A stretch of DNA of 64,000 bases from an uncultured Ectothiorhodospiraceae bacterium (GTDB lineage Bacteria; Pseudomonadota; Gammaproteobacteria; S012-40): NCBI GenBank assembly GCA_945787715.1, contig CALZJE010000005.1, positions 1 to 64,000 of the forward strand, written 5' to 3'. Both the position numbers and the translations under genes were made by a program. The notes under the pieces were generated by a model, which did not search any database, had not been told where the DNA came from, and saw nothing but the letters and a program-made list of their open reading frames with translations. Within the stretch, counting starts at the first letter, position 1. The number at the start of each line of letters is the position of its first letter. Below, in pieces: positions 1,484 through 60,855 of this stretch.

Positions 1484-2698
1484 ATGAAAATCCTCCATAT
1501 CCTTGATCATTCAATACCCTTACACAGCGGCTACACTTTTCGTTCACGATCAATATTGGAACATCAGCATCAATTAGGTTGGGAAACTGATCACATAACC
1601 AGCCCTAAGCATAATTTAGCCATAGAACCAGATGGCAGCGAAGAGATAATTGATGGCTTACATTTTTTTCGCACTCCACCGTCAACGGGTTTGCTAGCAA
1701 AATTGCCAGTTTTCAATCAACTCGCGATTTCAACAGCGCTTGAAAAACGACTTGAAGCAGTCATACCACATGTGAAGCCTGATATCTTACATGCGCATTC
1801 TCCAGCTTTAAATGGCCGTGCCGCAGTGAATATAGGGAAAAAATTTGGTATTCCTGTCGTCTACGAAATTCGAGCATTTTGGGAAGATGCAGCTGTGGAT
1901 CATGGTACGACTACCGAAGGTAGTCTTCGTTATCGTGTGACACGTGCGATGGAAACCAAAGTCATTCAAGAAGCCGATGCGGTTACGACAATTTGTGAAG
2001 GCCTTCGATCTGATATTATCAATCGTGGTATTTCTGAATCAAAAGTGACGGTCATTCCCAATGCAGTGGATATTTCCAAATTCAATCCCAATCCCGAGGT
2101 TGATCCTGTCTTACAGGATCAACTTAGGCTTAAAGGCCACCGTGTGCTTGGATTTATTGGTTCATTCTATGCCTACGAAGGTTTGCCCCTGTTAGTGAAG
2201 GCGCTTCCACTGATTTTGTGTGATTGCGCAGACACAAAGCTATTACTAGTGGGCGGCGGCCCTCAGGAAGCGAAGATAAAGCAACTTGTCAGCGAGTTAA
2301 AACTGGATGACAAGGTAATCTTTACCGGACGCGTGCCTCATGACCAAGTGCAGAAGTATTATGATCTGGTGGACATCTTTGTTTATCCACGTTTATCTAT
2401 GCGTCTGACCGATCTGGTGACTCCACTCAAACCCCTGGAGGCGATGGCCCAGAAGCGCCTGGTGGTGGCATCTGATGTGGGTGGCCACAAGGAGCTAATC
2501 CGTGATGGTGAAACCGGCATGTTATTCATGGCCGATGATGTTAAAGATCTAGCTAAAACAGTTATGAAACTTATGAAGCAACAGGATAGGTGGCCTGCAA
2601 TGCGCGACGCCGGGAGAGTTTATGTGGAAGAAAAACGCAACTGGGCTGTAAGTGTTAGCCGTTACCAAAACGTCTATTCTGCGCTGTTTGGGAAATAA
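1484..2698 (+). CDS. GT4 glycosyltransferase, exosortase A-associated (Daro_2409 family)
   Basis: This 404-residue protein starts MKILHILDHSIPLHSGYTFR, the signature opening of the exosortase A-associated Daro_2409-type glycosyltransferases. It has the two-Rossmann GT-B layout. The acceptor half includes HSPALNGRAA near residue 105. The donor half includes IGSFYAYEGL, LLLVGGGPQ and the late PLKPLEAMAQ nucleotide-sugar site with the E of an EX7E-like pair. It would transfer a sugar from a nucleotide donor to the growing lipid-linked repeat on the cytoplasmic face. It has an ATG start with no convincing Shine-Dalgarno. It lies between the amidotransferase and a decayed glycosyltransferase start, probably in one transcription unit with the former. 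Confidence 0.88.
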   Translation: MKILHILDHSIPLHSGYTFRSRSILEHQHQLGWETDHITSPKHNLAIEPDGSEEIIDGLHFFRTPPSTGLLAKLPVFNQLAISTALEKRLEAVIPHVKPDILHAHSPALNGRAAVNIGKKFGIPVVYEIRAFWEDAAVDHGTTTEGSLRYRVTRAMETKVIQEADAVTTICEGLRSDIINRGISESKVTVIPNAVDISKFNPNPEVDPVLQDQLRLKGHRVLGFIGSFYAYEGLPLLVKALPLILCDCADTKLLLVGGGPQEAKIKQLVSELKLDDKVIFTGRVPHDQVQKYYDLVDIFVYPRLSMRLTDLVTPLKPLEAMAQKRLVVASDVGGHKELIRDGETGMLFMADDVKDLAKTVMKLMKQQDRWPAMRDAGRVYVEEKRNWAVSVSRYQNVYSALFGK

Positions 2699-8301: not shown

Positions 8302-9168
8302 CTATGATTGTTCCAATTCTCCTGGAATTGTGTAGCCTATTTCTACCATCATGTCACCGCAAATTGCGTTAAAAAGCTCTTTCTGTTCAAGTGTCCACTG
8401 AAAATAAGGAGATGTGCGAGCTTTAAACTCCGCTTTGGCATCAGTGTTTTTGCGATCACCTTTGTCAAGTGGGTGAACCACAGTTGTGGTAACGAATTCT
8501 ACTACTTTCTGATCCAGTGGCAATGCCATAAAGTCAAATATTTTTTCAAAAAAAGTTGTTGGATTTTCAACTAAATCCTCGTGACGGACAAAAATACAAT
8601 TATCTGCTTTAATTAAATACCGATACTTCATTGCCTCATTCGTCCAGGCTTCACAATGCGTTTGAAAATTTCGTTCTTTAAAGCCATGATATTTTGACAT
8701 TGAATTGACCACATCAATACCACTACGTGCAATGTATATATATTTTGCTTTAGGAAATAAAAAGTTCAGTCCTTTAAAAGGTTTTTCTGATGGAAACGTT
8801 TTTACACCGAAATACTTAATCGAAAAGAGATTTTTTCGTGTTTTGATAATTGTATTTATTATATGAGTAAGTCCGTAATATTGACCTGCTGCGGATTCGA
8901 AGCCAATCCTTTTAAAAGCATTATAAAAATATGTTTTTTTAACATTTAGAGAGTTTGTGTAATATTCAGAGTTTTCAGCAAATTCGAACAAATAAGTATC
9001 ACCTCCAACACTGGTATAAAATGGAGCTTCACCAGGTAATGCAAGTATTTGCTTGTGTTTTCCCAGAGCTTGTAGAAGTACGCTTGTACCGGATCTCCCA
9101 CTGCCCACCACGAAAACTGGATTATTATAGAAGTTGCGAGATAGATATTTTCCTATAAAACTTATCAT
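8302..9168 (-). CDS. Sulfotransferase-family protein
   Basis: The 288-residue protein has a classic PAPS-binding P-loop-like start, VFVVGSGRSGTSVLLQALG (about 18-36), corresponding to the 5'-phosphosulfate loop of sulfotransferases. The 3'-phosphate region follows (KYIYIARSGIDVVNSMSKYH, near 136-155, with R and S), then a later VRHEDLVENP segment. It should move sulfate from PAPS to a carbohydrate hydroxyl in the cytoplasm. Its ATG overlaps the TGA of the upstream sulfatase-like gene (ATGA), so the two are translationally coupled. It is the last gene of a long minus-strand run. PAPS can be supplied by the Sat/CysC genes at 40.3 and 59.1 kb. Confidence 0.85.
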   Translation of the reverse strand: MISFIGKYLSRNFYNNPVFVVGSGRSGTSVLLQALGKHKQILALPGEAPFYTSVGGDTYLFEFAENSEYYTNSLNVKKTYFYNAFKRIGFESAAGQYYGLTHIINTIIKTRKNLFSIKYFGVKTFPSEKPFKGLNFLFPKAKYIYIARSGIDVVNSMSKYHGFKERNFQTHCEAWTNEAMKYRYLIKADNCIFVRHEDLVENPTTFFEKIFDFMALPLDQKVVEFVTTTVVHPLDKGDRKNTDAKAEFKARTSPYFQWTLEQKELFNAICGDMMVEIGYTIPGELEQS

Positions 9169-11243
9169 GTTTCACTCATATGTTTAGCCAGCTCATTTTT
9201 TAGTGATTTCACAATGTCTGGATATTGTAAAGTAAGATTATTTTGACAGTCCGGATCATTTTCCATATCAAATAGAAAGTATTCGATCCGATTATTTAAC
9301 GGAAGGGCAATTAATTTCCATTTTCCTTTTCGGATCATACGGTCCTTAGCCTTCTCTATTATCGGAACAAACTTGGGTTTAATTGAAAGTGTTCCGGTTG
9401 AAATATCCGGGACATCAAGTAATTCGAGTAAACCGGGATATCGTATGTGCTCTGGGTGCATATTGGGCAAATCACCTAGCCATATTCCAGTTTCCTGGTA
9501 TGCAGGTAAATTTAAGTCCAAGTGGGGATTCTCAAAAAGTGGTTTTAAGCTTACGCCATCGCCATTAGGAATTGGAATATTGCAGAGATCTAATAGTGTA
9601 GGTGCAATGTCGTATTGTCGAGTTACTTGTTGTATGTGAATTCCAGCGGAGTAAGAGGGCGAGTGAATAATTACAGGTACACGAGCACTGTGGTCTCGAC
9701 CGAAGAGAGTATTTCCCTGACCCCACACACCATTCTCATAAAAATCCGTTCCATGGTCGCTATATATCACAACGATAGTATTATCCACAAGCCCGGTGTC
9801 AGTAAGGTGATTTAAAATTTGTTTTACAGCGTTATCGAAGTTATAGATACAGCCATCGTACAAATTCTTTATTTGGTCTAAATCGAATGCTTCTACGGTT
9901 TGTTCCTGTTTGTCTATCACATCATTGGGATCAGAATATGTGAACATAACGAACTTTGATTCACCTGAATACTTTCCGTTTGAGAATTTTAAATAATTGG
10001 GATGCTCGCTACCAAATGGCGCGTGTGTTGTTCCCATAAAAACATTTAGGAAAAATGGGGATTCTTTTGTTGCCAGTTCGCTTATGGAGTTAATTGTCTC
10101 ATTTGTAAGGTATTGAGTTAATGGATTACCAGCTTGGTAAAATATCTCTGGTAGTAAATACTTTCCGATTCGATTATTCGAAAAAAGAGAGAGAAATAGC
10201 CGTAGTGGCATAGGTCCCTGGCGAAGATAATATTTGATATTCCACTGGTCCTCGGGCGTGTCAACGATGTCGTAACCGAAGTTAAACTTTTTAAGATCTG
10301 CTCCTGCCCAATCCGAAATTGCCTTGGTAATATAACCATTTTCTTTAAATATTTTTGGTAGCGCTGAATCCGGTATGCAAGTGTTCGAATGATCAACAAA
10401 GTTGTCGATAATACCCATTTTTTGAGGCAGTATGCCCGTATGCAAACATGCGAGGCTAGGCGCGGTTCGAGCGAGCGGGGTGTAACAATTCGTTAGACAG
10501 AAGCTTTTTTTCGCAAGTTCATCTATTGTAGGTGTTGTGCTTCTCGAATAACCAAAAGAACTAATGTGATCGACTCTTAGGGTGTCCGTACCGATTAATA
10601 AAATGTTGGGTTGGTTTGCTGATTGTAAATTTCCTCTCCTTTTTATGCGTCGAAAGTTTGTGAGTCTAGGTGTTATTATGCTTAACAGGATTATTGTTGC
10701 AAAGTAAGCTTGTAGAATTGAATAAGAATGATATGTTGAAATTACTAAGGCAGTGACCAATGGGATGAAGTAAAACGATATTAATAAAATACCTGTGATT
10801 TTTATTCCGATTGGAGAGAGTAAATTCCAAATGGGGTATAGTCTTGTTACGTTGTATTGCCAAGAAGAAATTATCGTGCTTGGTGTATACAAAAGAAGTT
10901 TCAAAAAAGAGTAAGTAGTGGCAGAAAAGAAAAACAAACAAGCTGTTATGAGCGCATATGTTAAATCATGCTGTATAGAAAAAATTACAACTATTGCATC
11001 ATATAGGCTTTTTCCAAGAAGTAATTGGATGAAAATTAAAAAGTATGTATATACGGCCAATCGTGTTACAGAGAATACAGTATAGGTTAGATAGTTCTTT
11101 ATGATCTTATCTTTTAATTGTGGTCCAGTTCTACTGTAGTCGACTAAGGATTTGATCACTAAAATAAGAGTGAAAACCACTGCGCATAAAGCGATATCTA
11201 AAGCTCCGGTTGCAAAGTATATTTCAGGTGGGGTTGGTCGCAT
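9165..11243 (-). CDS. Membrane-anchored sulfatase-fold enzyme with Thr in place of the formylglycine Cys
   Basis: This 692-residue protein has an N-terminal domain of about five membrane spans (residues 10-190) followed by an alkaline-phosphatase/sulfatase superfamily domain. Metal-site motifs are present: GTDTLRVDH (219-226), YSDHGTDF and GRDHSARVPVIIHSP. At the nucleophile position the expected CxPSR motif reads T-A-P-S-L (Thr260-Leu264). It therefore lacks the Cys or Ser needed for formylglycine, and the adjacent Arg. A Thr nucleophile is typical of the phosphotransferase/phosphodiesterase members (EptA- and LtaS-type), which are also membrane-anchored. It may thus transfer or remove a phospho-group, or be a diverged sulfatase. 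It couples by ATGA overlap to the sulfotransferase and follows a GT2 gene by 2 bases. Confidence 0.8.
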   Translation of the reverse strand: MRPTPPEIYFATGALDIALCAVVFTLILVIKSLVDYSRTGPQLKDKIIKNYLTYTVFSVTRLAVYTYFLIFIQLLLGKSLYDAIVVIFSIQHDLTYALITACLFFFSATTYSFLKLLLYTPSTIISSWQYNVTRLYPIWNLLSPIGIKITGILLISFYFIPLVTALVISTYHSYSILQAYFATIILLSIITPRLTNFRRIKRRGNLQSANQPNILLIGTDTLRVDHISSFGYSRSTTPTIDELAKKSFCLTNCYTPLARTAPSLACLHTGILPQKMGIIDNFVDHSNTCIPDSALPKIFKENGYITKAISDWAGADLKKFNFGYDIVDTPEDQWNIKYYLRQGPMPLRLFLSLFSNNRIGKYLLPEIFYQAGNPLTQYLTNETINSISELATKESPFFLNVFMGTTHAPFGSEHPNYLKFSNGKYSGESKFVMFTYSDPNDVIDKQEQTVEAFDLDQIKNLYDGCIYNFDNAVKQILNHLTDTGLVDNTIVVIYSDHGTDFYENGVWGQGNTLFGRDHSARVPVIIHSPSYSAGIHIQQVTRQYDIAPTLLDLCNIPIPNGDGVSLKPLFENPHLDLNLPAYQETGIWLGDLPNMHPEHIRYPGLLELLDVPDISTGTLSIKPKFVPIIEKAKDRMIRKGKWKLIALPLNNRIEYFLFDMENDPDCQNNLTLQYPDIVKSLKNELAKHMSET

Positions 11244-40285: not shown

Positions 40286-41998
40286 TTACTTAATAAATCC
40301 CAACTTTTCCAGTTTTAAAATAATTCGTTGAGCAGCTTCATCTGGCGTGCAATCAGTTGTATCAATTTTAATTTCGGGATTTTCAGGTGTCTCGTAGGGG
40401 TCACTAATACCGGTAAATTCTTTAATAATACCGGCTCTAGCTTTTGCGTATAGGCCTTTGCGATCACGATCCTCGCAAACTTCTATTGACGTGGCAATGT
40501 GAACTTCAATGAATCCACCGTTTGACGTAATCATCTCTCGTACTTTTCGACGAGTCGCTTTATAAGGGGCGATCGGTGCACAAATGGCAATTCCACCATT
40601 CTTTGTGATTTCACTCGCCACATAGCCGATTCGTTCAATGTTTATATTCCTGTGCTCTTTTGAAAAGCCAAGCTCGCTGGAAAGATGTTTTCTGACTAGG
40701 TCGCCATCAAGTAATGTGACTCTGCGATTGCCTGCTTCCAAGAATTTAACTAATAGCGCGTTAGCAATGGTTGATTTTCCGGAGCCAGATAATCCTGTGA
40801 AAAAGATAGTGAAACCTTGTTTATGTTTTGGCGGGTGAGTTTTTCGTAGCTCTGCTACAACTTCTGGGAAGGAGAACCAACTAGGAATTTCGAGGCCTTC
40901 CTGAAGGCGTCGTCGAAACTCCGTTCCTGATATGTTGAGTACAGACTCATTTTCTTTAACTTCTGAAATAGGGTGATATTCCGCTTTATCCTCAACGTAA
41001 ACCATGGCTTCAAACGGAACCATATCAATTTCGAGTTCATCTTTATATTTTTTCACTAAGTATTGAGCATCGTAAGGCCCGTAAAAATCATCTCCTTGTG
41101 AATTTTTCCCAGGGCCGGCATGATCTCGACCGACAATAAAGTGGGTACATCCATAATTTTTTCGAATGATGGCGTGCCAAACTGCTTCTCTTGGGCCTGC
41201 CATACGCATGGCTATTGGCAGCAAGCTAAGCATTGTTGTTTGTGCAGGATATTGCGATAAGATGTGTTGATAGCAACGTACTCTGGAATAATGATCTATA
41301 TCTCCAGGTTTGGTCATTCCGACTACCGGGTGGATTAGTAGATTTGCTTCTACTTGCTGTGCTGCTCTGAAAGTAAGCTCCTGATGAGCTCTATGCATCG
41401 GGTTTCGTGTTTGAAATGCGACAACTTTCCGCCAACCTTTTTTCTGAACAGCTGCCCTAAGCTCTGCTGGCGTATTTCGTAGGCCATTGAAGTCGTAATG
41501 TGTGGGGAGTTCCACACCTTTTAATTCACCACCTAAATTAACATTTCCTGCATCATTGTATAAGTATGATACAGCTGGATGGTTTTCGTCGTCAGCGCCA
41601 TAAGTTTTAATCGCTTCATTTTTTTTATCAACAGTCCATTTGTCTGAAACTTTCATTGTGGCGATCAATACACCTTCTTCATCTCGAAGTGCAATCTCAT
41701 CTCCTGTGGATATATTAGCTGCAAAATCTACTGAAACGTCCAGGGTGATTGGCATTGTCCATAAGATACCGTTCGCCAATCTCATATTATCGAGAACTGA
41801 GAGATAATCTTTTTCGTTTAAAAAACCATCAAGCGGTGAAAATCCTCCGCATAGCAACAATTCAACATCACAGAGTTGTCTATGCGTTAAATCCCAGGAC
41901 GGATAGTTCTTCGCTCGTTCTCTCTCTTTAGAGGCTTCGTCTGGGGATAAGTAAAGATTTTTTAATTCGCCACCGTGTGGCTTGATAAGAGATGTCAT
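40286..41998 (-). CDS. Bifunctional sulfate adenylyltransferase / adenylylsulfate kinase (copy 1)
   Basis: The 570-residue protein has ATP sulfurylase (Sat) in roughly residues 1-390 and APS kinase (CysC) in 395-570. Sat motifs: FQTRNPMHRAHQEL, HPVVGMTKPGD and HFIVGRDHAGPGKNSQGDDF. CysC motifs: the P-loop GLSGSGKSTIANALL, LDGDLVRKHLSSELGFS and FIEVHIATSIEVCEDRDRKG. It turns sulfate into APS and then PAPS in the cytoplasm. There is no reductive-assimilation gene beside it, so production of PAPS for sulfotransferases is the likely purpose. It is divergent from the SLC13 permease gene at 42357 and upstream of the DHH phosphoesterase. A close paralogue is at 59143-60855. Confidence 0.95.
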   Translation of the reverse strand: MTSLIKPHGGELKNLYLSPDEASKERERAKNYPSWDLTHRQLCDVELLLCGGFSPLDGFLNEKDYLSVLDNMRLANGILWTMPITLDVSVDFAANISTGDEIALRDEEGVLIATMKVSDKWTVDKKNEAIKTYGADDENHPAVSYLYNDAGNVNLGGELKGVELPTHYDFNGLRNTPAELRAAVQKKGWRKVVAFQTRNPMHRAHQELTFRAAQQVEANLLIHPVVGMTKPGDIDHYSRVRCYQHILSQYPAQTTMLSLLPIAMRMAGPREAVWHAIIRKNYGCTHFIVGRDHAGPGKNSQGDDFYGPYDAQYLVKKYKDELEIDMVPFEAMVYVEDKAEYHPISEVKENESVLNISGTEFRRRLQEGLEIPSWFSFPEVVAELRKTHPPKHKQGFTIFFTGLSGSGKSTIANALLVKFLEAGNRRVTLLDGDLVRKHLSSELGFSKEHRNINIERIGYVASEITKNGGIAICAPIAPYKATRRKVREMITSNGGFIEVHIATSIEVCEDRDRKGLYAKARAGIIKEFTGISDPYETPENPEIKIDTTDCTPDEAAQRIILKLEKLGFIK

Positions 41999-44210: not shown

Positions 44211-45440
44211 TTAAGTTAAAATCTCCATTGCACTTGGATGGCTTAAAAAACGTTCGGGGCTTGCAGTGTACCCATAAGCTCCCGATTGAAAAACAACAAT
44301 GAGGTCACCGACATCTGCTTCAGTTAATTCCATTTTATTGGCCAGAATATCCAGTGGTGTACACAAAGGACCGACAACGTTAACGATTTTTTTATTGCCA
44401 TTAATTTTATTCCCAATGACAACAGGGTAGTTTTTTCGAATTACCTGCCCAAAATTTCCCGATGCAGCAAGATGATGATGCAGTCCACCATCGGTAATTA
44501 AATAAGTTTCACCTCGTGATATTTTTTTGTCGATAACTCTGCAGACATATACTCCAGCTTCGCCAACAAGGAAGCGTCCTAATTCCATCACGATTTCCGC
44601 TTCAGGCAGGTTTTGTTTTACGGTGGGGAGAAGTTGTTTTAGGTTTTCTGATATTGGTTGAAGGTCAATGCGTGTGTCACCTGGAAAATAAGGTATGCCG
44701 AGCCCGCCACCAATATTAAGTAATTTAGGGGGGGTGGGCGCATACTCGGTTAGTTGACCGGCCAGTTCGAATGTTTTGTTATGCGCGTCAATAATACTTT
44801 CTGCGCTTAGGTTTTGTGACCCGCTAAAAATATGAAATCCATAAAATTGAATGGGAAGCTCAGCAAGTTTTTTAATCATTGCTGGAACCCGTTCCGCATC
44901 GACACCAAACTGTTTTGGGCCGCCGCTCATTTTCATGCCAGAAGCTTTAAGTTCAAAATCGGGGTTTACGCGAATGGCAACTTTAGGTACTAAACATATT
45001 TGCTCAGCAAGTGTGGCAATCCGTACCATTTCAGTTTCGGATTCCATGTTGATGACGATTTCTGCAGCTATGGCTTGTTTTAATTCTTTATCGGTTTTGC
45101 CTGGCCCGGCAAAGCTGATGTGCTTGTGCGGCATTTCTGTGTCAAGTGCAATTTTCATTTCGCCGGCAGAAGCTACGTCAAAACCGTCAACCAGTGCTGA
45201 CATCAGTTGCACAATTGCGGGCATGGGATTGGCTTTAATCGCATAATGTAAGTGTATATCTTCCGAAAAAGCGTTCCTCAACGATGCTGCACGCTCTTTA
45301 ATTAAGCGCCGATCGTACGCGTAAAAAGGTGTCTGTCCAACTTGTTGTGCCAGTTGAGTAAGGGGTGTTCCACCGATTTGTACGCAATTATTTTTGACAG
45401 AAAATTGATCCATCTGGACATGTTTAGGTTTTTCCTTCAT
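44211..45440 (-). CDS. PLP-dependent decarboxylase, exosortase A-associated
   Basis: The protein has 409 residues, fold type III (LysA/ornithine decarboxylase-like). The PLP lysine is in HLHYAIKANPMPAI (near 80-93). HIFSGSQNL, the glycine loop NIGGGLGIPYF, VMELGRFLVGEAGVYVCRVI and FQSGAYGYTASP, with the active-site Tyr, are all present. It probably decarboxylates a diamino or amino acid, giving an amine or amino-acyl building block used with the acyl carrier protein and acyl-CoA ligase of the same system. Its ATG overlaps the ligase TGA (45437-45440), so both are translated together. Confidence 0.9.
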   Translation of the reverse strand: MKEKPKHVQMDQFSVKNNCVQIGGTPLTQLAQQVGQTPFYAYDRRLIKERAASLRNAFSEDIHLHYAIKANPMPAIVQLMSALVDGFDVASAGEMKIALDTEMPHKHISFAGPGKTDKELKQAIAAEIVINMESETEMVRIATLAEQICLVPKVAIRVNPDFELKASGMKMSGGPKQFGVDAERVPAMIKKLAELPIQFYGFHIFSGSQNLSAESIIDAHNKTFELAGQLTEYAPTPPKLLNIGGGLGIPYFPGDTRIDLQPISENLKQLLPTVKQNLPEAEIVMELGRFLVGEAGVYVCRVIDKKISRGETYLITDGGLHHHLAASGNFGQVIRKNYPVVIGNKINGNKKIVNVVGPLCTPLDILANKMELTEADVGDLIVVFQSGAYGYTASPERFLSHPSAMEILT

Positions 45441-47026
45441 TGGTTTTCGTCCTGGAATCGATTTTTGTGTGGCTGCGCCAATTGTTTGCGGTCTATTTTT
45501 CCGTTGGGATTTTTAGGCATTAGCGCAATTATTTCAATATGCGCAGGCATCATGAAATTTGGTAATTGTCTTTTACATACAGTTAGAATTTGTTCAGCAG
45601 CCTCTTCTTGAGCAGTCTCTTCTTGAACTGTCGCAATAACAACTATCGCTTGTCCTAGCGTGGGGTGAGGTATTCCGAGTGCAGCAACTTCTGATACCAA
45701 TCCTGTTGCATAAACTACTTCTTCTATTTCGGTAGGGCTTACTCTGTATCCGGAGGTTTTAATCATGTCATCTTTTCTGGCAATGAAATAAAGATAACCT
45801 TCTTCATCCATTTTAACGGTGTCACCAGACCATACTGCGATTTCAGTTAAAGTAAGTCCGTTTTCTTTTGCTGGAACTGGTTTAAAGTGTTCTGCTGTTT
45901 TTTGAGAGGCATTCCAGTAGCCAAGAGAAACCAGGGAGCCACGATGTACCAACTCACCGGGTTCTCCTACCGCACAAGGGCTGCCATCGGCGCGCACTAC
46001 CATTACTTCAGCATTTGGGATGGCTTTACCCATTGATGTAGGTCGTTTGTCAATTTCACTTGGCGGTAAATAGGTTGATCGAAATGCTTCAGTTAAACCG
46101 TACATCAAAAAGGTTTCAGTATTTGGTAGCGACTTGCGTAGGGAAGTAAGCGTCGCTTGAGGCATCGCTCCGCCTGAGTTAGTGATATAGCGAAGGGTTT
46201 TTGATGTGTTTCCCCAATCTAGATTTGCTAATTGATTCCACAATGGCGGCACGCCGGCTAAACCAGTAATTGCATATTTTTCGATAGTTTTAATTACGTC
46301 TCGCGGTAGTAAATAATCTAACATGGTAACGCTCGCGCCAACATGAAATGCAGTTGTTAGTTGGCTTAAGCCATAATCAAAACTGAATGGAAGAACTGCA
46401 AGTAAATTATCTACTGATGAATTATTTAAATATTCAGCGACACTTTTCGCTCCGGCTATTATGTTTTTATGGGAGAGAACAACACCTTTTGGTTTTCCGG
46501 TGCTGCCAGATGTATACAAGATTGCTGCAATGTCTGAATCAATGCGCAGGTGAGGATTATAAATTTCGGTTCTTGAAGCTGTAGCAAAGTGTTGTGTTTT
46601 AAAGCGCTGTTTTACATCAAAATCAAGTTTGTTGTTAACATCAATAACTGTCATCAGGTCGTGACAATTATTTAGAAATTCTTGTAGTTGGGCTAGCCGA
46701 TCATGTGACGAAATTAATATTCGAACATTACAGTCTTTAAGTATGTACGTTACTTGCTCGGGTTTTAATAAAGGGTTGATGGGCACAAACACAGCGCCAG
46801 AGTACGAGACCGCAAAGAAAGAAATAACCGTTTCAAATTGTTTTGGAAGGTATATGGCTATTCTTTCTCCTGATGATATTCCCAGTTCTAGAAGCGCCTG
46901 CCCAAAGGATAGTATTTCTTTATTTAGGGTTTGGTAGTCAAGGGATTCTCTTTTATAGTTTAGCGCCGTCTGGCTAGGTGATCTGGCTGCTGAAAGTTCG
47001 ATAAATTCGTGAAGTTGTTTGGGCAT
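45437..47026 (-). CDS. Acyl-CoA ligase (AMP-forming), exosortase A-associated
   Basis: This 529-residue ANL-superfamily enzyme has the P-loop ILYTSGSTGKPKGVVLSH (about 170-187), YGLTEAFRSTYLP as the Y-G-x-T-E region, SGDTVKMDEEGYLYFIARKDD and the lid hinge with GYRVSPTEIEEVVY. The catalytic lysine is probably in PNGKIDRKQL near the C-terminus. The length and order fit the exosortase A-associated acyl-CoA ligase family, which is thought to load an acid onto the dedicated acyl carrier protein. It is the first gene of a two-gene leftward operon with the decarboxylase. Confidence 0.9.
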   Translation of the reverse strand: MPKQLHEFIELSAARSPSQTALNYKRESLDYQTLNKEILSFGQALLELGISSGERIAIYLPKQFETVISFFAVSYSGAVFVPINPLLKPEQVTYILKDCNVRILISSHDRLAQLQEFLNNCHDLMTVIDVNNKLDFDVKQRFKTQHFATASRTEIYNPHLRIDSDIAAILYTSGSTGKPKGVVLSHKNIIAGAKSVAEYLNNSSVDNLLAVLPFSFDYGLSQLTTAFHVGASVTMLDYLLPRDVIKTIEKYAITGLAGVPPLWNQLANLDWGNTSKTLRYITNSGGAMPQATLTSLRKSLPNTETFLMYGLTEAFRSTYLPPSEIDKRPTSMGKAIPNAEVMVVRADGSPCAVGEPGELVHRGSLVSLGYWNASQKTAEHFKPVPAKENGLTLTEIAVWSGDTVKMDEEGYLYFIARKDDMIKTSGYRVSPTEIEEVVYATGLVSEVAALGIPHPTLGQAIVVIATVQEETAQEEAAEQILTVCKRQLPNFMMPAHIEIIALMPKNPNGKIDRKQLAQPHKNRFQDENQ

Positions 47027-47493: not shown

Positions 47494-48195
47494 ATGAAAG
47501 ATAAAAAAATTAAAGATAAACATAATAGAGATTCTTCAGTTGATCTTTCTAAGCGTCGCTTGACTAAAGTTGGACTGCTTACATCGACTGTTGTGGCTTC
47601 AGTTTCTGGAAAGTCGGCATTTGCCGCAGTTGGGGCGACAAATAATTGCACTGTTTCCGGTAACATGTCTGGTAATATTTCACGTGACACATTACTAGAT
47701 CCCTGTGAAATTAAATATAGTGGTCATACACCGGGTTTTTGGAAGAATCGCCCAAGAGAGTGGGTGGGGACTGGGTTGGTGCCTAACTATTGTGACTATA
47801 CAGCTGCAGGGATTCATCCTGCCTGTAACAAGTATGATTTTGATACGACCTTCAATTCTGATCCGCTTTTTTCTGCGGAAGCCACGGTTTTTGGCGACGT
47901 GTTTGGTGGATTGCGTTATGGCTCAAGTACTTGCACTGAAGTCCTATGGTTTTTTGTAAAGAATAAATCTTCTGAGCACGCTCTGGGGGCTCATGTTGTA
48001 GCCGCTTATTTAAATTCCTATTACTATTACGATGTTAACCCTGCAGTTAGCCAGTTTCCTTATTCCCAAGATGATATCAAGGCGCTATATACAGACTATC
48101 TTAATGGTAATCTGTCGGAAATTCTTTTAAAAGATGTGTTGGTTGCTTTGAACGAAATATCTGGAGATACTGATCCAAGTTGGTGGGATGCTTGA
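47494..48195 (+). CDS. Exported Cys-containing protein with a TPGFWKN motif, unknown function
   Basis: The 233-residue protein has a very basic N-terminus and a signal-like segment, SKRRLTKVGLLTSTVVASVS, ending GKSAFA with a plausible cleavage after AFA near residue 46. The arginine pair lacks the full twin-arginine consensus. The mature part holds five cysteines (CTVSG, CEIKY, CDYT, CNKYD, CTEV) and a GHTPGFWKNRPREW motif. No membrane anchor or PEP-CTERM tail is present; the end is DPSWWDA. I do not recognise a function. It is followed 85 bases later by a PqqD-like, kinase and nucleotidyltransferase set, so it may be their substrate or the exported product of the same system. Confidence 0.7.
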   Translation: MKDKKIKDKHNRDSSVDLSKRRLTKVGLLTSTVVASVSGKSAFAAVGATNNCTVSGNMSGNISRDTLLDPCEIKYSGHTPGFWKNRPREWVGTGLVPNYCDYTAAGIHPACNKYDFDTTFNSDPLFSAEATVFGDVFGGLRYGSSTCTEVLWFFVKNKSSEHALGAHVVAAYLNSYYYYDVNPAVSQFPYSQDDIKALYTDYLNGNLSEILLKDVLVALNEISGDTDPSWWDA

Positions 48196-48280
48196 TCCTA
48201 GCTGCTAGTTATTACTCCAAAGTTTTTATATGTCATTCCAAAATATTGTTTACTAATATTATTGCAGTGTAGTTCTTACT

Positions 48281-48565
48281 ATGACTAAGGTATGGAGTGC
48301 TGTATCCCCGGATCTTTTTCAGCTAAAAGAATGGGAAGGTGAAGGGGTTTTGTATCTGGCTGATTCTGGTGATACCCACCTGTTAAATCAAGTAGGCGTC
48401 CAAGTCCTGATGATACTTAAGGATAAACCTTTTGAGTTGAGTGAATTAGTCGAGCAGTTAAATCAGTCAATATATCCGAATAGCGAACGGATCACAGATA
48501 ATATGATATCAGGGGTGCTTACTGAGCTGTATTATTTGGGTGTGTTAACTAAAGTGAAATCGTGA
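48281..48565 (+). CDS. PqqD-like peptide-binding protein (HPr-rel-A system type)
   Basis: This small protein of 94 residues fits the PqqD/RRE fold: the first strands (WSAVSPDLFQLKEWEGEGVLYLADSG), DTHLLNQVGVQVLMIL, then two helices with the FELSELVEQLNQ and ITDNMISGVLTELYYLGVL pattern. The W...E..VLY...SG.THLL pattern is typical of the PqqD branch paired with HprK-related kinases. PqqD-type domains bind leader peptides of ribosomal peptides. Its stop overlaps the start of the kinase gene (GTGA at 48562-48565), implying coupled translation and a shared job. Confidence 0.85.
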   Translation: MTKVWSAVSPDLFQLKEWEGEGVLYLADSGDTHLLNQVGVQVLMILKDKPFELSELVEQLNQSIYPNSERITDNMISGVLTELYYLGVLTKVKS

Positions 48566-49473
48566 ATATAGGCTCGATTCCACAAATAGATTTGCTGAAG
48601 ACTATACAAAATGAAGGTGTAGTATTTCAGGTTGCAGGCTTTACAATTAAGCTTCAATCCCCTTTCCCTGAAGTATCTAAAAACATCCATAAGCTCTATT
48701 CTGATTACCCCCTTGCTGAGCAAGGTTCGTTTATAGACTTTCATATGAAAGTTGCTCCTCCCAAAGGTTTGCGGCGCTGGTATCGCCCACAAGTTGAATT
48801 TCACTTAGATGGTTTTCGACCCTTTAAGCCCCTGCCTCAAGATCAAGCATATGCCATGTTTGAATGGTCACTAAACTGGTGCATTGCTAATCATATGCAT
48901 AACTATTTTATTGTTCATGCGGCTGTTGTGGAAAAAGAAGGGAAGTGCATTATTTTCCCTGCCCCGCCAGGGTCAGGAAAGAGTACTCTTTGTGCAAGTT
49001 TAGTTATGAGTGGATGGCGGTTACTTTCTGATGAATTGGCTTTGGTAGATCGTAACGCTGAGAATGTATTTCCTATTCCCCGACCTATTAACTTAAAAAA
49101 TGCATCAATAGATATTATTCGCGCTCGTTATCCCGGCGCTATTTTTGGTCCTATCATAAAAGATACCGCTAAAGGAACCGTTTCTCATCTTAAGCCTCCG
49201 GCTACAAGTGTACGTTTGGCGTCTCAATTATCGAGGCCGGCATGGGTTATTTTTCCTAAATATCAAGCTGGCTCAATTACAAAGCTTGAAAAAAAGTCTA
49301 AAGCACAGACTTTTATGGGAGTAGCGCAAAATGCATTTAACTATACTGTGCTCGGCAGTGAGGGGTTTGATACGCTTGGACGGTTAATAGATGGCTGCGA
49401 TTGTTATGATTTTTGCTATAGTGACATTGATGAGGCTATAGAGACTTTTCAATCATTACTTGATTCAAAATAA
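48562..49473 (+). CDS. HprK-related kinase
   Basis: This 303-residue protein has the P-loop kinase core of HprK/PEPCK type. It contains a His near the strand before the loop (VHAAVVE, His119), Walker A PAPPGSGKSTLC (Gly137-Thr142) and the following LLSDELALV (Asp157-Glu158), which replaces the DD metal pair of HprK. The N-terminal 110 residues have no HprK N-domain. The HPr-recognition and K/R-type loops of true HprK are not evident. Similar kinases occur in lasso-peptide clusters, where they phosphorylate the peptide. It starts with GTG overlapping the PqqD-like stop, and is followed directly by the nucleotidyltransferase gene (TAA then ATG). Confidence 0.87.
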   Translation: MNIGSIPQIDLLKTIQNEGVVFQVAGFTIKLQSPFPEVSKNIHKLYSDYPLAEQGSFIDFHMKVAPPKGLRRWYRPQVEFHLDGFRPFKPLPQDQAYAMFEWSLNWCIANHMHNYFIVHAAVVEKEGKCIIFPAPPGSGKSTLCASLVMSGWRLLSDELALVDRNAENVFPIPRPINLKNASIDIIRARYPGAIFGPIIKDTAKGTVSHLKPPATSVRLASQLSRPAWVIFPKYQAGSITKLEKKSKAQTFMGVAQNAFNYTVLGSEGFDTLGRLIDGCDCYDFCYSDIDEAIETFQSLLDSK

Positions 49474-50571
49474 ATGGATATTTCAAAAAACAAGCTTGCA
49501 GAGTTATTGCGCTCGCCTGAAAAAATGGATCAATTTAATCTCTCTGATTGGGATGTAATCATACGTCAAGCTCGCGCTTCAAATTTGATGTTTAAGCTCT
49601 ATCACTTGTTTGAACAAAAAAACGATCTAGGAAAAGTGCCTCTTGAAGCAAGACGACATCTTGAGGCTAGTCGTCATCTTGGGGCGAATTTGCATCATTC
49701 GGTTTTTCTCGAAGTTGAGTATATAAACTCAGCGCTCAAGTGCATAGGTTTGCCCGTAGTTTTACTCAAAGGTGCTGCTTATGTCATTAAAGGTGCTGAA
49801 GCTGGAAATGGTAGATTGTTTTCTGATATTGATATTTTAGTGGAGAAAAACCATTTGCCGGAAGCGGAAAAAATATTTAAGCAGCACGGATGGTTTGCAA
49901 GTAATTATGATGAATATAATGATCGCTACTATCGTTCGTGGATGCATGAAATACCGCCACTAACCCACGTTAAAAGGGATTCTGTGCTTGATGTACATCA
50001 TGCGATTATTCCTCCTACAGCAAATCTAAAACCTGATACATCTAAGTTATTTAATTGCATCGAGCAAGTTGATGGTTTGGAAAATGTGTTTACACTTTCC
50101 TCTATTGACATGGTGTTACATAGTGCCGTTCATCTTTTTCAAGATGGAGAGTTAGAGCATGGTTTTAGAGATCTTGTCGATTTAGATGCGTTAGCAAGAG
50201 AATTTTCAGCGCAAGACTCAAGCTTCTGGGAAAAGCTGGTAAGTCGAGCTCAAGAGTTGGGTTTGCAGCGCCCACTTTATTATGCGATAAGATATACGCG
50301 ACGATTTTTAAATACGCCAATTTCTCAATTGGGGTTGCACGGAAGTGAAGAAGGTAAACCATCTTTTCCGAAGTTGATGGATTTTTTATTTGAAAGAGCT
50401 TTAATGCCAGCGCATTCAACATGTGATGATAGCTTTACTGCATTGGCGCGCTGGGTGTTGTACATTCGCGCACACTATCTTCGTATGCCTTTATCCTTGC
50501 TGCTCCCACATTTGATTCGAAAAGCATATATGAAACGTGTGGAAAAAAATAAAGCAGCCACTGCTCAGTAA
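49474..50571 (+). CDS. Nucleotidyltransferase-family protein (NTP_transf_5 type)
   Basis: This 365-residue protein has a minimal nucleotidyltransferase fold, VVLLKGAAYVIKG and GRLFSDIDILVEK (Asp118, Asp120), followed by an alpha-helical region with VLDVHHAIIPP and SIDMVLHSAVHLFQDGELEH. This is the NTP_transf_5 type that accompanies HprK-like kinases in lasso-peptide and related clusters. It could add a nucleotide or extend a phosphate on a phosphorylated substrate. It abuts the kinase gene with no gap. The C-terminal 60 residues are basic. Nothing follows for 243 bases until cytochrome c4. Confidence 0.85.
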   Translation: MDISKNKLAELLRSPEKMDQFNLSDWDVIIRQARASNLMFKLYHLFEQKNDLGKVPLEARRHLEASRHLGANLHHSVFLEVEYINSALKCIGLPVVLLKGAAYVIKGAEAGNGRLFSDIDILVEKNHLPEAEKIFKQHGWFASNYDEYNDRYYRSWMHEIPPLTHVKRDSVLDVHHAIIPPTANLKPDTSKLFNCIEQVDGLENVFTLSSIDMVLHSAVHLFQDGELEHGFRDLVDLDALAREFSAQDSSFWEKLVSRAQELGLQRPLYYAIRYTRRFLNTPISQLGLHGSEEGKPSFPKLMDFLFERALMPAHSTCDDSFTALARWVLYIRAHYLRMPLSLLLPHLIRKAYMKRVEKNKAATAQ

Positions 50572-52445: not shown

Positions 52446-53550
52446 TTATCTCGATATAAACGCTTTTACGATTTGAGTTAGAGTAGAAACTAGCTCATCT
52501 GCTTGTACTTTTTCCATATTTAATGGTGGAAGTAAGCGAACAACTCTCTCGGCAGTAACATTAATTAATAGGTTGTTTTCAATTGCAAGGCTGACTAGTT
52601 CTGCGCATGGGCGGTCTAATTCAATACCAATCATCATTCCCAGGCCTCGAATATCGATGACCTCAGATGTTTCCGAAAAACTGGCTTTAAACTGTGAGAC
52701 TAAATATTCACCAGTGTTTTTAGCTTGGACGTGTGTGTTTTCTTTTTCATGGGCTGCAAGCGTAGCAGAGGCTACGTGACAGGCTAGCGGATTGCCGCCA
52801 TAGGTTGAGCCGTGATTTCCTGGCTTGAAAACTTCTGCTGCTTTTCCTTTCGCTAGACAAGCACCGATAGGGAAGCCATTGCCCATGGCTTTAGCAATTG
52901 TCATGATATCTGGTGTAATACCGCTGTGCTGATGAGCAAACCATTTGCCTGTTCTGCATATGCCAGTTTGAATCTCATCAAGCATCATTAGCCAGCACTG
53001 CTACAACATTTTTGTTGTTTTTTGCAACTTCTCGAATCGCATCTACATCATTAAATGGAACGCGAGCAAAGCCGCTCACCAGAGGTTCGAAGCCAGCCTG
53101 AATTTTTCTATTACCCGTGGCTGATAGCGTGGCAAGTGTTCGGCCGTGAAAGCTGTTGTCTGCAACAATAATTGTTGGTGTTTGAATGCCTTTGTTATGG
53201 CCAAACATTCGGGCGATTTTGATAGCAGCTTCGTTTGCTTCTGCCCCGGAGTTTGTGAAAAATGCAGAATCCATATCAGTGAGGGAGCATAATTTCCCTG
53301 CTAATGTTTCCTGTGCAGGAATACGATAGACATTTGAGGTGTGGATTAGCGTTGCCGATTGTTCGCATATTGCTTTACTAACAGTAGGGTGTGCATGACC
53401 TAAAGAGCAAACGGCAATTCCGCAGAGTGCGTCTAAGTATTTCTTCCCTTCACTATCCCAGACATAGGAGCCAGCCCCTTTTACGAGCGATATTGGCTGC
53501 CTACCATAAGTATTCATTAAATTATTTGTAGTCATTTTTCTTGGATTCAT
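52446..53550 (-). pseudogene. argD: Acetylornithine aminotransferase argD, broken by internal deletion and frameshift
   Basis: The gene is split into two frames. Residues 1-190 (53550 to 52978) run from the start through SFHGRTLATLSATGNRKIQ to VVAVLANDA and a stop. The second part (52988 to 52446, 180 residues) begins at LDEIQTGICRTGKWFA and continues with the PLP lysine region TIAKAMGNGFPIG. About 30 residues, normally including VEPIQGEGG, are missing exactly at the join, and the frame shifts. The junction has CTGG/TGG micro-homology. The total, 370 plus about 30, matches the usual 400-residue length, so this is a roughly 90-base deletion. The enzyme should be inactive; another aminotransferase could replace it, or the sequence contains an error. 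Confidence 0.85.
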
Positions 53551-56656: not shown

Positions 56657-58432
56657 ATGTGCGGTATTTGTGGTGAATTAAGATTTGATGGTCAGTCTGT
56701 TGACTCCAGTGTTATTGCGTCGATGATGACAAAGCTTGAGAAACGTGGGCCAGACTCTGGCGGGAGTTTTTGTGAGGCGAATCTGGGTTTCGGTCATCGT
56801 CGATTATCGATCATTGACCTATCCGATAAATCTCGTCAACCCATGTACGACCCAGACCTTAATTTACATCTCGTATTTAACGGCGCAATTTATAATTACA
56901 AAATATTACGTGAGCAGTTGCAAAGAGAAGGTTATCGTTTTTTTTCAGATGGTGATACCGAAGTTATTCTCAAGGCATATCACTTTTGGGGTGAAGCGTG
57001 TGTAGAGCATTTACATGGTATGTTTGCATTTGCATTATGGGATGTAAAAAAACATAGCTTGTTTGTTGCGCGTGACAGGATTGGCATAAAACCACTCTAT
57101 TTTAGTCATACCGACAATGTATTTCGTTTTGCTTCAAATTTACAAGCATTGCTAACAACGGGTGAAGTTGATACCTCGATTGACGCATTGGCACTGCACA
57201 ATTTATTTACTTTACATGCGGTTGTTCCTGCTCCAAGAACACTTTTCAATGGTGTTCGAAAGTTATCGCCAGCTCATACACTCACTATTAACGAAAAAGG
57301 TGAAGTGGAAGAAAAGTGCTATTGGGAGCTAAACGCTACACGCCCTGAAAAAACACTATCTGAAAAAGAGTGGGTGGACGAAATTCATTCAGCACTACGA
57401 CAAGCGGTGAAAATCCGTAAAGAAATTGCCGATGTACCCGTGGGTGTTTTGTTGTCTGGTGGTTTGGATTCTAGCTTACTGGTTGCACTATTAGCAGAGG
57501 CTGGTGTCAAAGATATCCTAACCTTCTCAATTGGTTTTGAAGATATCGGGGACGAGGTTGGGAGTGAATTTGAATATTCTGATGCTGTTGTCGAAAAATT
57601 TAACACTCAGCATCATAAAATGCATGTACCAAATGAGGAAGTTTTAAAACGGTTGCCTGAGGCTGTGGCTAGCATGGCTGAGCCAATGTTTGGGCAAGAT
57701 GCTGTGGCGTTTTATCTCTTGTCTGAGCAAGTTTCAAAGAAAGTGAAAGTTGTGCAGAGTGGACAAGGTGCGGATGAAGTCTTCGGTGGTTACTTCTGGT
57801 TTCCGAAAATGGAGGCAGAGCAGGGTAGTGATTTAGAGCGTTTTCGTAAACACTACTTTGATAGAGATCATAATGAATATTTGCAAATGGTTTCAAAAGA
57901 TTTTCAGTGTGAAGATTATTCCAGCAAAATCATATCCAAGTTGTTAGCTGCACCCAATGCAGATACGTTTATGGATCGTGTATTGCGAATGGATACGACG
58001 ACCTTGATTGTGGATGATCCTGTCAAGCGCGTAGATAATATGACCATGGCTTGGGGATTAGAAGCACGAGTCCCGTTTCTTGATCATAAGTTGCTAGAAG
58101 TTGCGGCTCAGATGCCTCCTGAGTTGAAGTTGAAATCAGATGGAAAACATCCGTTGAAAGTTATTTCGAGAGGATTGCTGCCGGATAAGGTCATCGACAG
58201 ACCTAAGGGCTATTTCCCCATGCCCGCACTCAAATATGTGCGTGGTGAGTTTTACGATTTTATGCAAGATATTTTAAATTCGCAGGCATGTATTAATCGC
58301 AATATCTATAGTCGAGATTATGTGCAAATGTTATTGAGTGCGCCGGAGCAACATCATACGCGCTTACAGGGCAGTAAACTATGGCATTTAGCATTGTTAG
58401 AATTTTGGTTACAGACTAATTTAAGCAATTGA
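56657..58432 (+). CDS. AsnB-family amidotransferase, N-acetylglutaminylglutamine amidotransferase type
   Basis: The 591-residue protein has an intact glutaminase domain beginning MCGICGELRFDG, with catalytic Cys2, RGPDSGG and the RLSIIDLS strand. The synthetase domain has the PP-loop SGGLDSSLLVALL, FSIGFEDIGDEVGSEFEYSD, FYLLSEQVSKKVKVVQSGQG, ADEVFGGYFW and EARVPFLDHKLL. These match the family that forms the terminal amide of the osmolyte N-acetylglutaminylglutamine amide. The usual partner synthetase and peptidase genes are not adjacent; HyuB is instead. A general asparagine synthase role is the alternative. Confidence 0.78.
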   Translation: MCGICGELRFDGQSVDSSVIASMMTKLEKRGPDSGGSFCEANLGFGHRRLSIIDLSDKSRQPMYDPDLNLHLVFNGAIYNYKILREQLQREGYRFFSDGDTEVILKAYHFWGEACVEHLHGMFAFALWDVKKHSLFVARDRIGIKPLYFSHTDNVFRFASNLQALLTTGEVDTSIDALALHNLFTLHAVVPAPRTLFNGVRKLSPAHTLTINEKGEVEEKCYWELNATRPEKTLSEKEWVDEIHSALRQAVKIRKEIADVPVGVLLSGGLDSSLLVALLAEAGVKDILTFSIGFEDIGDEVGSEFEYSDAVVEKFNTQHHKMHVPNEEVLKRLPEAVASMAEPMFGQDAVAFYLLSEQVSKKVKVVQSGQGADEVFGGYFWFPKMEAEQGSDLERFRKHYFDRDHNEYLQMVSKDFQCEDYSSKIISKLLAAPNADTFMDRVLRMDTTTLIVDDPVKRVDNMTMAWGLEARVPFLDHKLLEVAAQMPPELKLKSDGKHPLKVISRGLLPDKVIDRPKGYFPMPALKYVRGEFYDFMQDILNSQACINRNIYSRDYVQMLLSAPEQHHTRLQGSKLWHLALLEFWLQTNLSN

Positions 58433-59142: not shown

Positions 59143-60855
59143 TTATTTAATAAGCCCTTCTTTTTCTAATTTTAAAATAATTCTTTGGGCAGCCTCTTCG
59201 GCAGACGTATCTTGTGTGTCGATGGCTAAGTCAGGAGACTCTGGTGTTTCATAGGGATCACTTACACCCGTAAAGCCTTCAATTCTGCCTGCACGTGCTT
59301 TTGCATAAAGACCTTTCGGGTCTCTTGCTTCACACACTTCCAAAGGCGTTGAAACATATATTTCAAGAAAGCCGCCGCTTGATTTTATTTCTTTACGTGC
59401 ATTATTTCTTGCTTTTGCATAAGGTGCAATCGGTGCGCAAATCGCAATGCCGCCATTTTTCGCAATTTCTTTGGCAACAAACGCAATACGTTTGATATTC
59501 TTATCGCGGTCAGCTTTTGTAAATCCTAATTCATCCGATAAATTCTCGCGGACCACGTCACCATCGAGTAACGTAACTTTTCTTCCACCCATTTCAAGGA
59601 ACTTAACAAGCAAAGCATTGGCAATTGTTGATTTTCCTGCGCCAGATAGACCCGTTAGGAAAATAACAAAGCCCTGTTTATGTTTTGGCGGATGAGTTTT
59701 TCTTAACTCAGCAACCACTTCCGAGTAAGAGAACCATTCAGGAATATCAAGACCCTCTTGAAGGCGGCGACGGAACTCTGTGCCTGAAATGTTCAGTACA
59801 CTTTCATCTTTATCCACTTCTGTGATCGGGTGATACTCTGCTTTGTTCTCAACATAAACCATCATTTGGAATGGCACCATTTGGATGCCAAGTTCATCCT
59901 GATATTTAGTTACCATTTCTTGTGCTTCATAGGGGCCGTAAAAATCTTCACCTTGTGAGTTTTTACCAGGGCCTGCGTGATCACGACCAACAATAAAGTG
60001 AGTGCAGCCATAGTTCTTACGAATTATCGCATGCCAAACTGCTTCACGAGGGCCACCCATGCGCATAGCTAAAGGTAATAAACTCAAAGTCGTCGTCTGC
60101 GCAGGATACTGTTTAATAATGTGCTGATAACATCGAACGCGTGAGTGGTGATCAATATCGCCAGGTTTAGTCATACCTACAACTGGTTGAATAATGAGAT
60201 TTGCTTCTGCTTCCTGTGCTGCACGAAATGTGAGTTCTTGATGAGCGCGATGCATAGGGTTCCGGGTTTGAAATGCAACAATTTTTTTCCATCCCCATTT
60301 TTCAAATTTAGCTCGGAGCTCAGTTGGTGTATCACGAAGCTGCTTATAATCATAATGTGTTAGTGGTCGAATACCTTTCAGTTTTCCACCTATATATGTA
60401 TTGCCTGCCTCATTATGAAGGTAAGCAACAGCCGGGTGAGCTAGGTCATCTGCGCCAAATACTTTAGCTGCTTCGTTGCTTTTATTGGGTTGCCATTTGT
60501 CAGAAACCTCCATGGTGGCTACCAATGTGCCCTCCTGATCAACCAAAGCAATGTGCTCACCTACGGTAATAGATGTGGCGAATGAATCATCAATATCCAA
60601 AGTTATTGGCATTGGCCATAGTGTGCCGTCTGCCAGATGTAGATCTTCAACAACAGTGTTGTAATCTGCTCGCGACATAAAACCATCTAGTGGAGAAAAG
60701 CCACCAGATAACAGCAATTCAATATCGCAGACTTGACGGTGAGTCAGTTTCCAGACTTGGTAGTCTGTTGCGGCTTTCTCTTCGGTTGCTGCATCTGTGG
60801 ATGAGAGATAAAGATTTTTTAATTCACCGCCATGTGGGGCAATTAATGAGCTCAT
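59143..60855 (-). CDS. Bifunctional sulfate adenylyltransferase / adenylylsulfate kinase (copy 2)
   Basis: This 570-residue paralogue of the gene at 40286-41998 is equal in length and similar along its whole sequence. Sat: FQTRNPMHRAHQEL, QPVVGMTKPGD, HFIVGRDHAGPGKNSQGEDF. CysC: GLSGAGKSTIANALL, LDGDVVRENLSDELGFT, FLEIYVSTPLEVCEARDPKG. It makes PAPS from sulfate and ATP. Unlike copy 1 it has no permease or phosphatase beside it and sits among housekeeping genes, so it may be the ancestral copy used generally, with copy 1 dedicated to the polysaccharide. Its upstream 139 bases, before the anti-sigma gene, should hold the promoter. Confidence 0.95.
   Translation of the reverse strand: MSSLIAPHGGELKNLYLSSTDAATEEKAATDYQVWKLTHRQVCDIELLLSGGFSPLDGFMSRADYNTVVEDLHLADGTLWPMPITLDIDDSFATSITVGEHIALVDQEGTLVATMEVSDKWQPNKSNEAAKVFGADDLAHPAVAYLHNEAGNTYIGGKLKGIRPLTHYDYKQLRDTPTELRAKFEKWGWKKIVAFQTRNPMHRAHQELTFRAAQEAEANLIIQPVVGMTKPGDIDHHSRVRCYQHIIKQYPAQTTTLSLLPLAMRMGGPREAVWHAIIRKNYGCTHFIVGRDHAGPGKNSQGEDFYGPYEAQEMVTKYQDELGIQMVPFQMMVYVENKAEYHPITEVDKDESVLNISGTEFRRRLQEGLDIPEWFSYSEVVAELRKTHPPKHKQGFVIFLTGLSGAGKSTIANALLVKFLEMGGRKVTLLDGDVVRENLSDELGFTKADRDKNIKRIAFVAKEIAKNGGIAICAPIAPYAKARNNARKEIKSSGGFLEIYVSTPLEVCEARDPKGLYAKARAGRIEGFTGVSDPYETPESPDLAIDTQDTSAEEAAQRIILKLEKEGLIK

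What the first reader, a model, noticed from the sequence alone, without database searches (positions are those of the whole stretch)
47494..50571. PqqD-like, HprK-like kinase and nucleotidyltransferase cassette without lasso-peptide machinery
Three overlapping or abutting genes encode a leader-peptide-binding PqqD-type protein, an HprK-related P-loop kinase and an NTP_transf_5 nucleotidyltransferase. The same three activities tailor phosphorylated lasso peptides in other bacteria, but no lasso cyclase, leader peptidase or precursor-like short gene is visible here. It may be an undescribed modification system in which an exported protein or peptide is bound, phosphorylated and then nucleotidylated or polyphosphorylated, linked to an exosortase polysaccharide locus.
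Basis: partly seen in the sequence, partly recalled or inferred. Interest (0 to 1): 0.82.

Follow-up and report, generated by a model that had tools for sequence, protein, structure and literature searches.

The report
Leader-guided protein phosphorylation cassette with its target
Bacteria carry a little-studied set of genes that probably grabs an exported protein by its signal tail, adds phosphate and then another group to it, and ships it out of the cell; the set was already named in databases, but the protein it most likely acts on, encoded right beside it, had not been recognised.

Summary
Three abutting genes (48281-50571) encode a PqqD/RRE-type protein, an HprK-like kinase and an NTP_transf_5 enzyme, with conserved catalytic residues. 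The cassette is not undescribed: NCBIfam models TIGR04352 (kinase, 401 bits, cut-off 200) and TIGR04353 (PqqD, 33 bits, cut-off 35) already name it the 'HPr-rel-A system'. I found no paper on its function. The claim that no precursor exists is wrong. The TPGFWKN protein (47494-48195) belongs to a position-conserved, fast-evolving group: 73 of 82 related loci carry, just upstream, a protein with a twin-arginine-like leader. No Pfam or NCBIfam model covered the members scanned. In four genomes the kinase pair lacks PqqD beside it; PqqD lies elsewhere, and in three of these the leader protein is again directly upstream. The PqqD model matches lasso-peptide leader-binding proteins in the PDB. About half the substrates end in C-[WFYL]-x-S-[FLIMV], a plausible phospho-acceptor; the window class has an invariant Ser in a disordered linker after the leader. 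Best explanation: RRE-guided cytoplasmic phosphorylation, then glycosyl or nucleotidyl transfer, on a probably Tat-exported protein, associated with exosortase-type polysaccharide loci. The chemistry is inferred from the lasso peptide pseudomycoidin and untested here.

The parts
47494..48195 (+). Putative substrate/precursor protein (233 aa): twin-arginine-like leader (SKRRLTKVGLLTSTVVASVSGKSAFA, residues ~18-43), Ser-rich disordered linker with invariant S55 and near-invariant S59, S63, then a helical domain; TPGFW motif between them
   Evidence: no Pfam or NCBIfam family; single copy in the genome
48281..48565 (+). PqqD-type peptide chaperone / RiPP recognition element (94 aa)
   Evidence: TIGR04353 E 8e-8, 33.1 bits (cut-off 35); AlphaFold model pLDDT 92 matches lasso B1 RREs bound to leader peptides
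48562..49473 (+). HprK-related kinase A (303 aa, GTG start, 4-nt overlap with the PqqD gene)
   Evidence: TIGR04352 400.9 bits; H119, P-loop G137/G139/K140, D157, E158 invariant in 81 sequences
49474..50571 (+). NTP_transf_5 nucleotidyltransferase-fold enzyme (365 aa)
   Evidence: PF14907 180.9 bits; K99, G100, D118, D120, D173, H175 invariant in 62 sequences

Best explanation
This is a copy of the NCBIfam-named but functionally uncharacterised HPr-rel-A system, together with its target. The target is the exported protein encoded just upstream (47494-48195). Proposed mechanism: (1) the PqqD-type protein (an RRE) binds the twin-arginine-like leader of the newly made protein in the cytoplasm (inferred from pairing and fold); (2) it brings the HprK-like kinase to a conserved Ser, either in the linker after the leader (window class) or in the C-terminal C-[WFYL]-x-S motif (other classes) (inferred); (3) the NTP_transf_5 enzyme then adds a hexose or nucleotide to that phosphate (inferred from the lasso peptide pseudomycoidin); (4) the modified protein is exported, probably by Tat, and works at the cell surface or in the exopolysaccharide matrix (inferred from motif and neighbourhood). 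Shown here: gene linkage, the paired leader protein, intact active-site residues and the predicted RRE fold. Not shown: any binding, modification or export.
For: Kinase and NTase family matches far over cut-off. PqqD detected in 70, NTase in 71 and a leader-type upstream protein in 73 of 82 loci. A leader HMM found the protein at this position in 14 loci outside its training set, and in only one place elsewhere at E<0.01 (a second copy in L124). In four genomes with no PqqD beside the kinase, PqqD lies elsewhere, and in three of them the leader protein sits directly upstream with the same C-terminal motif. The same leader appears in the 'hypothetical protein' of PGAP-annotated Vibrio and Sphingomonas plasmid cassettes. 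The PqqD model (pLDDT 92) best matches lasso B1 RREs in complex with leader peptides. 39 of 74 upstream proteins carry C-[WFYL]-x-S-[FLIMV] near the C terminus, and this label needs 2 changes on the kinase tree against a shuffled mean of 24. Twelve loci add a TPR-sulfotransferase; lasso clusters of this kind can also carry a sulfotransferase gene, and PsmK/PsmN phosphorylate then hexosylate a C-terminal Ser (PMC8498205, PMC9266682). TatC is in the genome.
Against: No binding, modification or export was measured. The window's leader reads SKRRLTK, a weaker Tat match than most relatives. The window-class protein lacks the C-terminal motif, so its acceptor site is uncertain. TIGR04353 is narrowly under its cut-off. 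NTP_transf_5 chemistry is unsettled even in lasso peptides, where a host glycosyltransferase has not been excluded, and PsmN could not be compared with PF14907 here. Some loci (L008, L085, L086, L099, L108) have the kinase without PqqD or leader protein alongside, and L123 has PqqD without it. Clustering of the motif on the kinase tree is partly common descent.
Confidence: 0.6

Rival explanations
1. The PqqD protein binds the leader only as a Tat-type proofreading chaperone. The kinase and NTase modify something else, such as a sugar, lipid carrier or polysaccharide precursor of the nearby locus.
For: PqqD and leader protein stay together while kinase-NTase can sit apart. Many cassettes lie among exosortase-A-type glycosyltransferases and the TIGR03108 amidotransferase. 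Five loci keep the kinase without the pair nearby.
Against: Kinase, PqqD and leader protein are usually one tight gene string. HprK-like kinases in lasso clusters act on peptides (PMC9266682). Substrate class follows the kinase tree rather than host class in the L129 case.
Confidence: 0.2
2. A true RiPP pathway: the leader is cleaved and a short C-terminal or linker peptide is released as a phosphorylated, glycosylated natural product.
For: RRE, kinase and NTase are RiPP tailoring types. Cores are highly variable with conserved ends. Sphingomonad-type proteins are only ~130 aa with a conserved C-terminal peptide.
Against: The window-class protein has a predicted helical domain of ~150 residues, and no dedicated peptidase or transporter was seen in the cassette. 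The leader resembles an export signal, not a known RiPP leader.
Confidence: 0.12
3. The upstream protein is an unrelated matrix protein that happens to be next to a regulatory kinase module.
For: Core sequences differ widely between classes; no biochemical link exists.
Against: 73 of 82 loci carry a leader-type protein in the same place, and three unlinked PqqD genes still have it upstream.
Confidence: 0.05

Closest known systems
NCBIfam HPr-rel-A system (TIGR04352 HprK_rel_A, TIGR04353 PqqD_rel_X)
   Same: Same kinase family far over cut-off, PqqD-type neighbour, nucleotidyltransferase neighbour; PGAP uses these names in public records
   Different: NCBIfam names the enzymes only; the members of the upstream leader protein that I scanned match no Pfam or NCBIfam model, and I found no paper on function
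Phosphorylated/glycosylated lasso peptide clusters (paeninodin PadeK, pseudomycoidin PsmK/PsmN)
   Same: HprK-like kinase, nucleotidyltransferase-type enzyme, PqqD-like B1 RRE, sometimes a sulfotransferase
   Different: No lasso cyclase or B2 peptidase; substrates are 130-300 aa proteins with a twin-arginine-like leader rather than short precursors
RiPP recognition elements (lasso B1 proteins such as TbiB1, TruD, PqqD)
   Same: Predicted RRE fold; best PDB matches are leader-bound lasso B1 proteins
   Different: Presumed ligand is an export signal of a larger protein; binding untested
Tat redox-enzyme maturation chaperones (TorD, DmsD; from own knowledge)
   Same: Would work alike: bind a twin-arginine leader until cytoplasmic maturation is done
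   Different: Different fold; maturation would be phosphorylation/glycosylation, not cofactor insertion; not a family member

Membership tests
NCBIfam HPr-rel-A system | HprK-related kinase A (TIGR04352) over cut-off | tested here: met
   400.9 bits against 200
NCBIfam HPr-rel-A system | PqqD-type peptide chaperone (TIGR04353) | tested here: inconclusive
   E 8.1e-8 but 33.1 bits against cut-off 35; position and fold agree
NCBIfam HPr-rel-A system | adjacent nucleotidyltransferase | tested here: met
   PF14907 180.9 bits, zero gap to the kinase; present in 71 of 82 loci
Lasso peptide biosynthesis | B2 leader peptidase (PF13471) in the genome | tested here: not met
   0 matches in own genome
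Lasso peptide biosynthesis | lasso cyclase (NF033535) near the cassette | tested here: not met
   The asparagine-synthase-like proteins scanned in the window (56657-58432, 4401-6206) score far below the lasso cut-off; the first is an N-acetylglutaminylglutamine amidotransferase over its own cut-off, the second is closest to TIGR03108 but below that cut-off too
HprK-like peptide kinases | His, P-loop Lys and acidic catalytic residues | tested here: met
   H119, K140, D157 and E158 invariant in 81 sequences; the second acidic residue is Glu, against the His-Lys-Asp-Asp motif of lasso kinases
HprK-like peptide kinases | phosphorylates a Ser of a peptide | not testable with these tools
   needs biochemistry
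RiPP recognition element fold | winged-helix RRE fold | tested here: met
   pLDDT 92 model; top PDB hits are TbiB1, TruD, TigE and a lasso B1-leader complex
RiPP recognition element fold | binds the leader peptide | not testable with these tools
   needs a binding assay or complex model
Tat substrate (47494-48195 protein) | S/T-R-R-x-F-L-K motif with hydrophobic stretch | tested here: inconclusive
   66 of 73 leaders have RR at the aligned place; the window reads SKRRLTK; TatC present
Exosortase / PEP-CTERM substrate | exosortase gene in the genome | tested here: not met
   No PF09721 match in own genome, though 39 of the 66 other cassette genomes have one
Exosortase / PEP-CTERM substrate | C-terminal PEP motif and membrane helix in the putative target | tested here: not met
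   The protein ends ...EISGDTDPSWWDA

The most novel reading that the evidence does not exclude
A signal-peptide-guided protein modification pathway: an RRE reads a Tat signal, the cargo is phosphorylated on Ser and capped with a sugar on the phosphate in the cytoplasm, and the phosphoglycosylated protein is then exported to act as a primer or anchor for an exosortase-locus-type exopolysaccharide.
Probability: 0.12. Interest if true: 0.85.

Novelty: new variant of a known kind. Interest (0 to 1): 0.62.

Why it matters
The kinase of this cassette is over its cut-off in 61 of 399 sampled genomes of the phylum, yet the system is only named, with no known target in the papers searched. The linkage analysis supplies a target, with a leader and candidate acceptor residues, so the function can be tested in one co-expression experiment. 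If right, leader-guided RiPP-style tailoring would extend to larger exported proteins, and PqqD-type proteins would gain a role as readers of export signals.

Tried and rejected
Lasso peptide cluster: rejected (no B2 family in the genome, no lasso cyclase over cut-off among proteins scanned). PEP-CTERM target: rejected (no C-terminal PEP/TM segment). Papers using the model names: none found; searches on RRE plus twin-arginine, or exosortase plus PqqD, found none. PDB sequence search of the kinase gave only spurious weak hits. Fold search of the putative target gave no match (best E 2.8), and its model is only moderately confident (pLDDT 68). Promoter/terminator scan was at chance level. The pseudomycoidin paper itself is not held, so PsmN could not be compared with PF14907 directly.

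Full report
WHAT IS THERE. The finding's coordinates hold four genes in a row on the + strand: a 233-aa protein (47494-48195), a 94-aa PqqD-like protein (48281-48565), a 303-aa kinase (48562-49473) and a 365-aa nucleotidyltransferase-fold protein (49474-50571). The last three overlap or abut. NCBIfam and Pfam identify them as TIGR04353 (33.1 bits, narrowly under the cut-off of 35), TIGR04352 HprK_rel_A (400.9 bits, cut-off 200) and PF14907 NTP_transf_5 (180.9 bits, cut-off 31.2). TIGR04353 is described as part of an 'HPr-rel-A system', so the cassette has a name. No paper in the library uses the model names I searched. Public plasmid records of Vibrio alfacsensis and Sphingomonas parapaucimobilis carry the cassette with PGAP names and a 'hypothetical protein' upstream.

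CONSERVATION OF THE TRIO. TIGR04352 is over its cut-off in 61 of 399 genomes drawn from the phylum and in 9 of 56 relatives, the window's own included. I collected 82 loci besides the window (18, 64). PqqD is detectable in 70 and NTP_transf_5 in 71, of which 62 lie within 450 bp downstream of the kinase; several losses are at contig ends. Six gammaproteobacterial loci with a leader protein have only a small ORF (62-92 aa) in the PqqD place, without an HMM match. The kinase keeps H119, the P-loop (G137, G139, K140), D157 and E158 in all 81 aligned sequences, and the NTase keeps K99, G100, D118, D120, D173 and H175 in all 62.

THE MISSING PRECURSOR IS THE TPGFWKN PROTEIN. In most loci the ORF just upstream of PqqD has an N terminus that follows one pattern: (S/T/A/R)-RR-x-(L/F)-x-K, then a hydrophobic stretch with recurrent P-V-x-x-T-L-x-S-(R/G) and an A-x-A-like end. 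A leader-only HMM, with four loci added by hand where the kinase ORF was called too long or the pair is inverted, gives 73 of 82 loci; 14 of these were outside the training set, and at E<0.01 the only other place in all that DNA was a second copy in L124. In 67 loci both PqqD and leader protein are present; the three with PqqD only are two loci cut by contig ends (L017, L018) and L123; six have neither nearby, one of them at a contig end. For four of these six the whole genome could be searched: each had PqqD elsewhere, and in three of the four the gene directly upstream encodes a leader protein with the same C-terminal motif. This test could have failed; it ties PqqD to the leader protein more tightly than to the enzymes. 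L139 is the exception. The members I scanned match no Pfam or NCBIfam model.

CLASSES AND CANDIDATE ACCEPTOR SITES. Cores vary. In the window class (25 sequences aligned) Ser55 and Cys71 are invariant and Ser59, Ser63, Gly77 and Asn174 nearly so. The model puts these serines in a low-confidence linker between the leader and a helical domain, which has no PDB fold match. In 39 of 74 upstream proteins, spanning two otherwise dissimilar classes, the C terminus carries C-[WFYL]-x-S-[FLIMV]; three unlinked copies and the Sphingomonas plasmid protein carry it too. On the kinase tree this label needs two changes against a shuffled mean of 24. L129, from the window's class, has both the motif and a kinase from the motif side of the tree. 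Common descent explains part of this, so it is supporting evidence only.

THE PqqD-TYPE PROTEIN IS A PREDICTED RRE. Its model is confident (pLDDT 92). The best PDB matches are lasso B1 proteins with bound leader peptides, TruD, TigE and other leader-binding domains. That supports leader recognition as the job; binding itself was not tested.

MECHANISM. Lasso peptide clusters supply the chemistry. HprK-like kinases phosphorylate the C-terminal Ser of precursors, and in pseudomycoidin the nucleotidyltransferase homologue PsmN puts one or two hexoses on the phosphorylated Ser, although nucleotidylation followed by host glycosylation has not been excluded; some such clusters also carry a sulfotransferase gene (PMC9266682, PMC8498205). 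Twelve of the loci here have a TPR-sulfotransferase directly after the kinase. By analogy the cassette would phosphorylate and then glycosylate or nucleotidylate the leader protein in the cytoplasm before export. A twin-arginine-like leader fits, because Tat carries folded, cytoplasmically finished proteins (established knowledge); TatC is present. The window's leader (SKRRLTK) is a weaker match than most.

POLYSACCHARIDE LINK. The window carries exosortase-A-associated genes: TIGR03098 and TIGR03099, TIGR03097 and TIGR04063. Exosortase is found in 39 of 67 cassette genomes against 11 of 64 without (Fisher p 2e-6), and within the window's class in 20 of 21 against 6 of 40 (p 7e-10). The comparison genomes were not matched for ancestry, so these p-values overstate independence. 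The window's own assembly has none, and many cassette genomes of other families also lack it, yet 36 of 82 loci lie beside genes typical of that locus, such as TIGR03088/TIGR03087 glycosyltransferases, the TIGR03108 amidotransferase or PrsT (cluster membership by BLAST, with one representative of each checked). The link is to the polysaccharide locus rather than to the sortase reaction.

VERDICT. Observation confirmed. Interpretation half right: leader-guided phosphorylation plus a second transfer remains the best reading, but the system is named and its likely target is in plain sight. Functional steps are inference.

Noticed in passing
window 52446-53550 (-): argD (acetylornithine aminotransferase) is interrupted: two overlapping ORFs in different frames; the first matches the N-terminal half of TIGR00707. 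Could be real or an assembly error.
   Followed up: partly
window 40286-41998 (-) and 59143-60855 (-): Two full-length bifunctional sulfate adenylyltransferase/APS kinase genes (PRK05537) in one window, with a sulfatase-like gene at 9165-11243, which may point to a sulfated polysaccharide.
   Followed up: partly
window 1484-2698, 7042-8280, 44211-47026: Exosortase-A-associated genes present while PF09721 exosortase is not found anywhere in this assembly; missing contig or a true loss.
   Followed up: partly
window 4401-6206 (-): Amidotransferase resembling TIGR03108 that aligns only from profile position 100, so the N-terminal glutaminase part looks missing or altered; below the family cut-off.
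   Followed up: no
L073, L080, L081, L082, L090, L093, L098: A TPR-sulfotransferase (PF13469) sits between kinase and NTase, followed by a TIGR03108-type amidotransferase: an extended cassette, often in genomes without exosortase.
   Followed up: partly
L124 8781-9449 and 11300-11935: A genome of the window's family has two paralogous leader proteins near one cassette.
   Followed up: no
L083: Leader protein and PqqD lie on the strand opposite to the kinase, a rearranged cassette.
   Followed up: no
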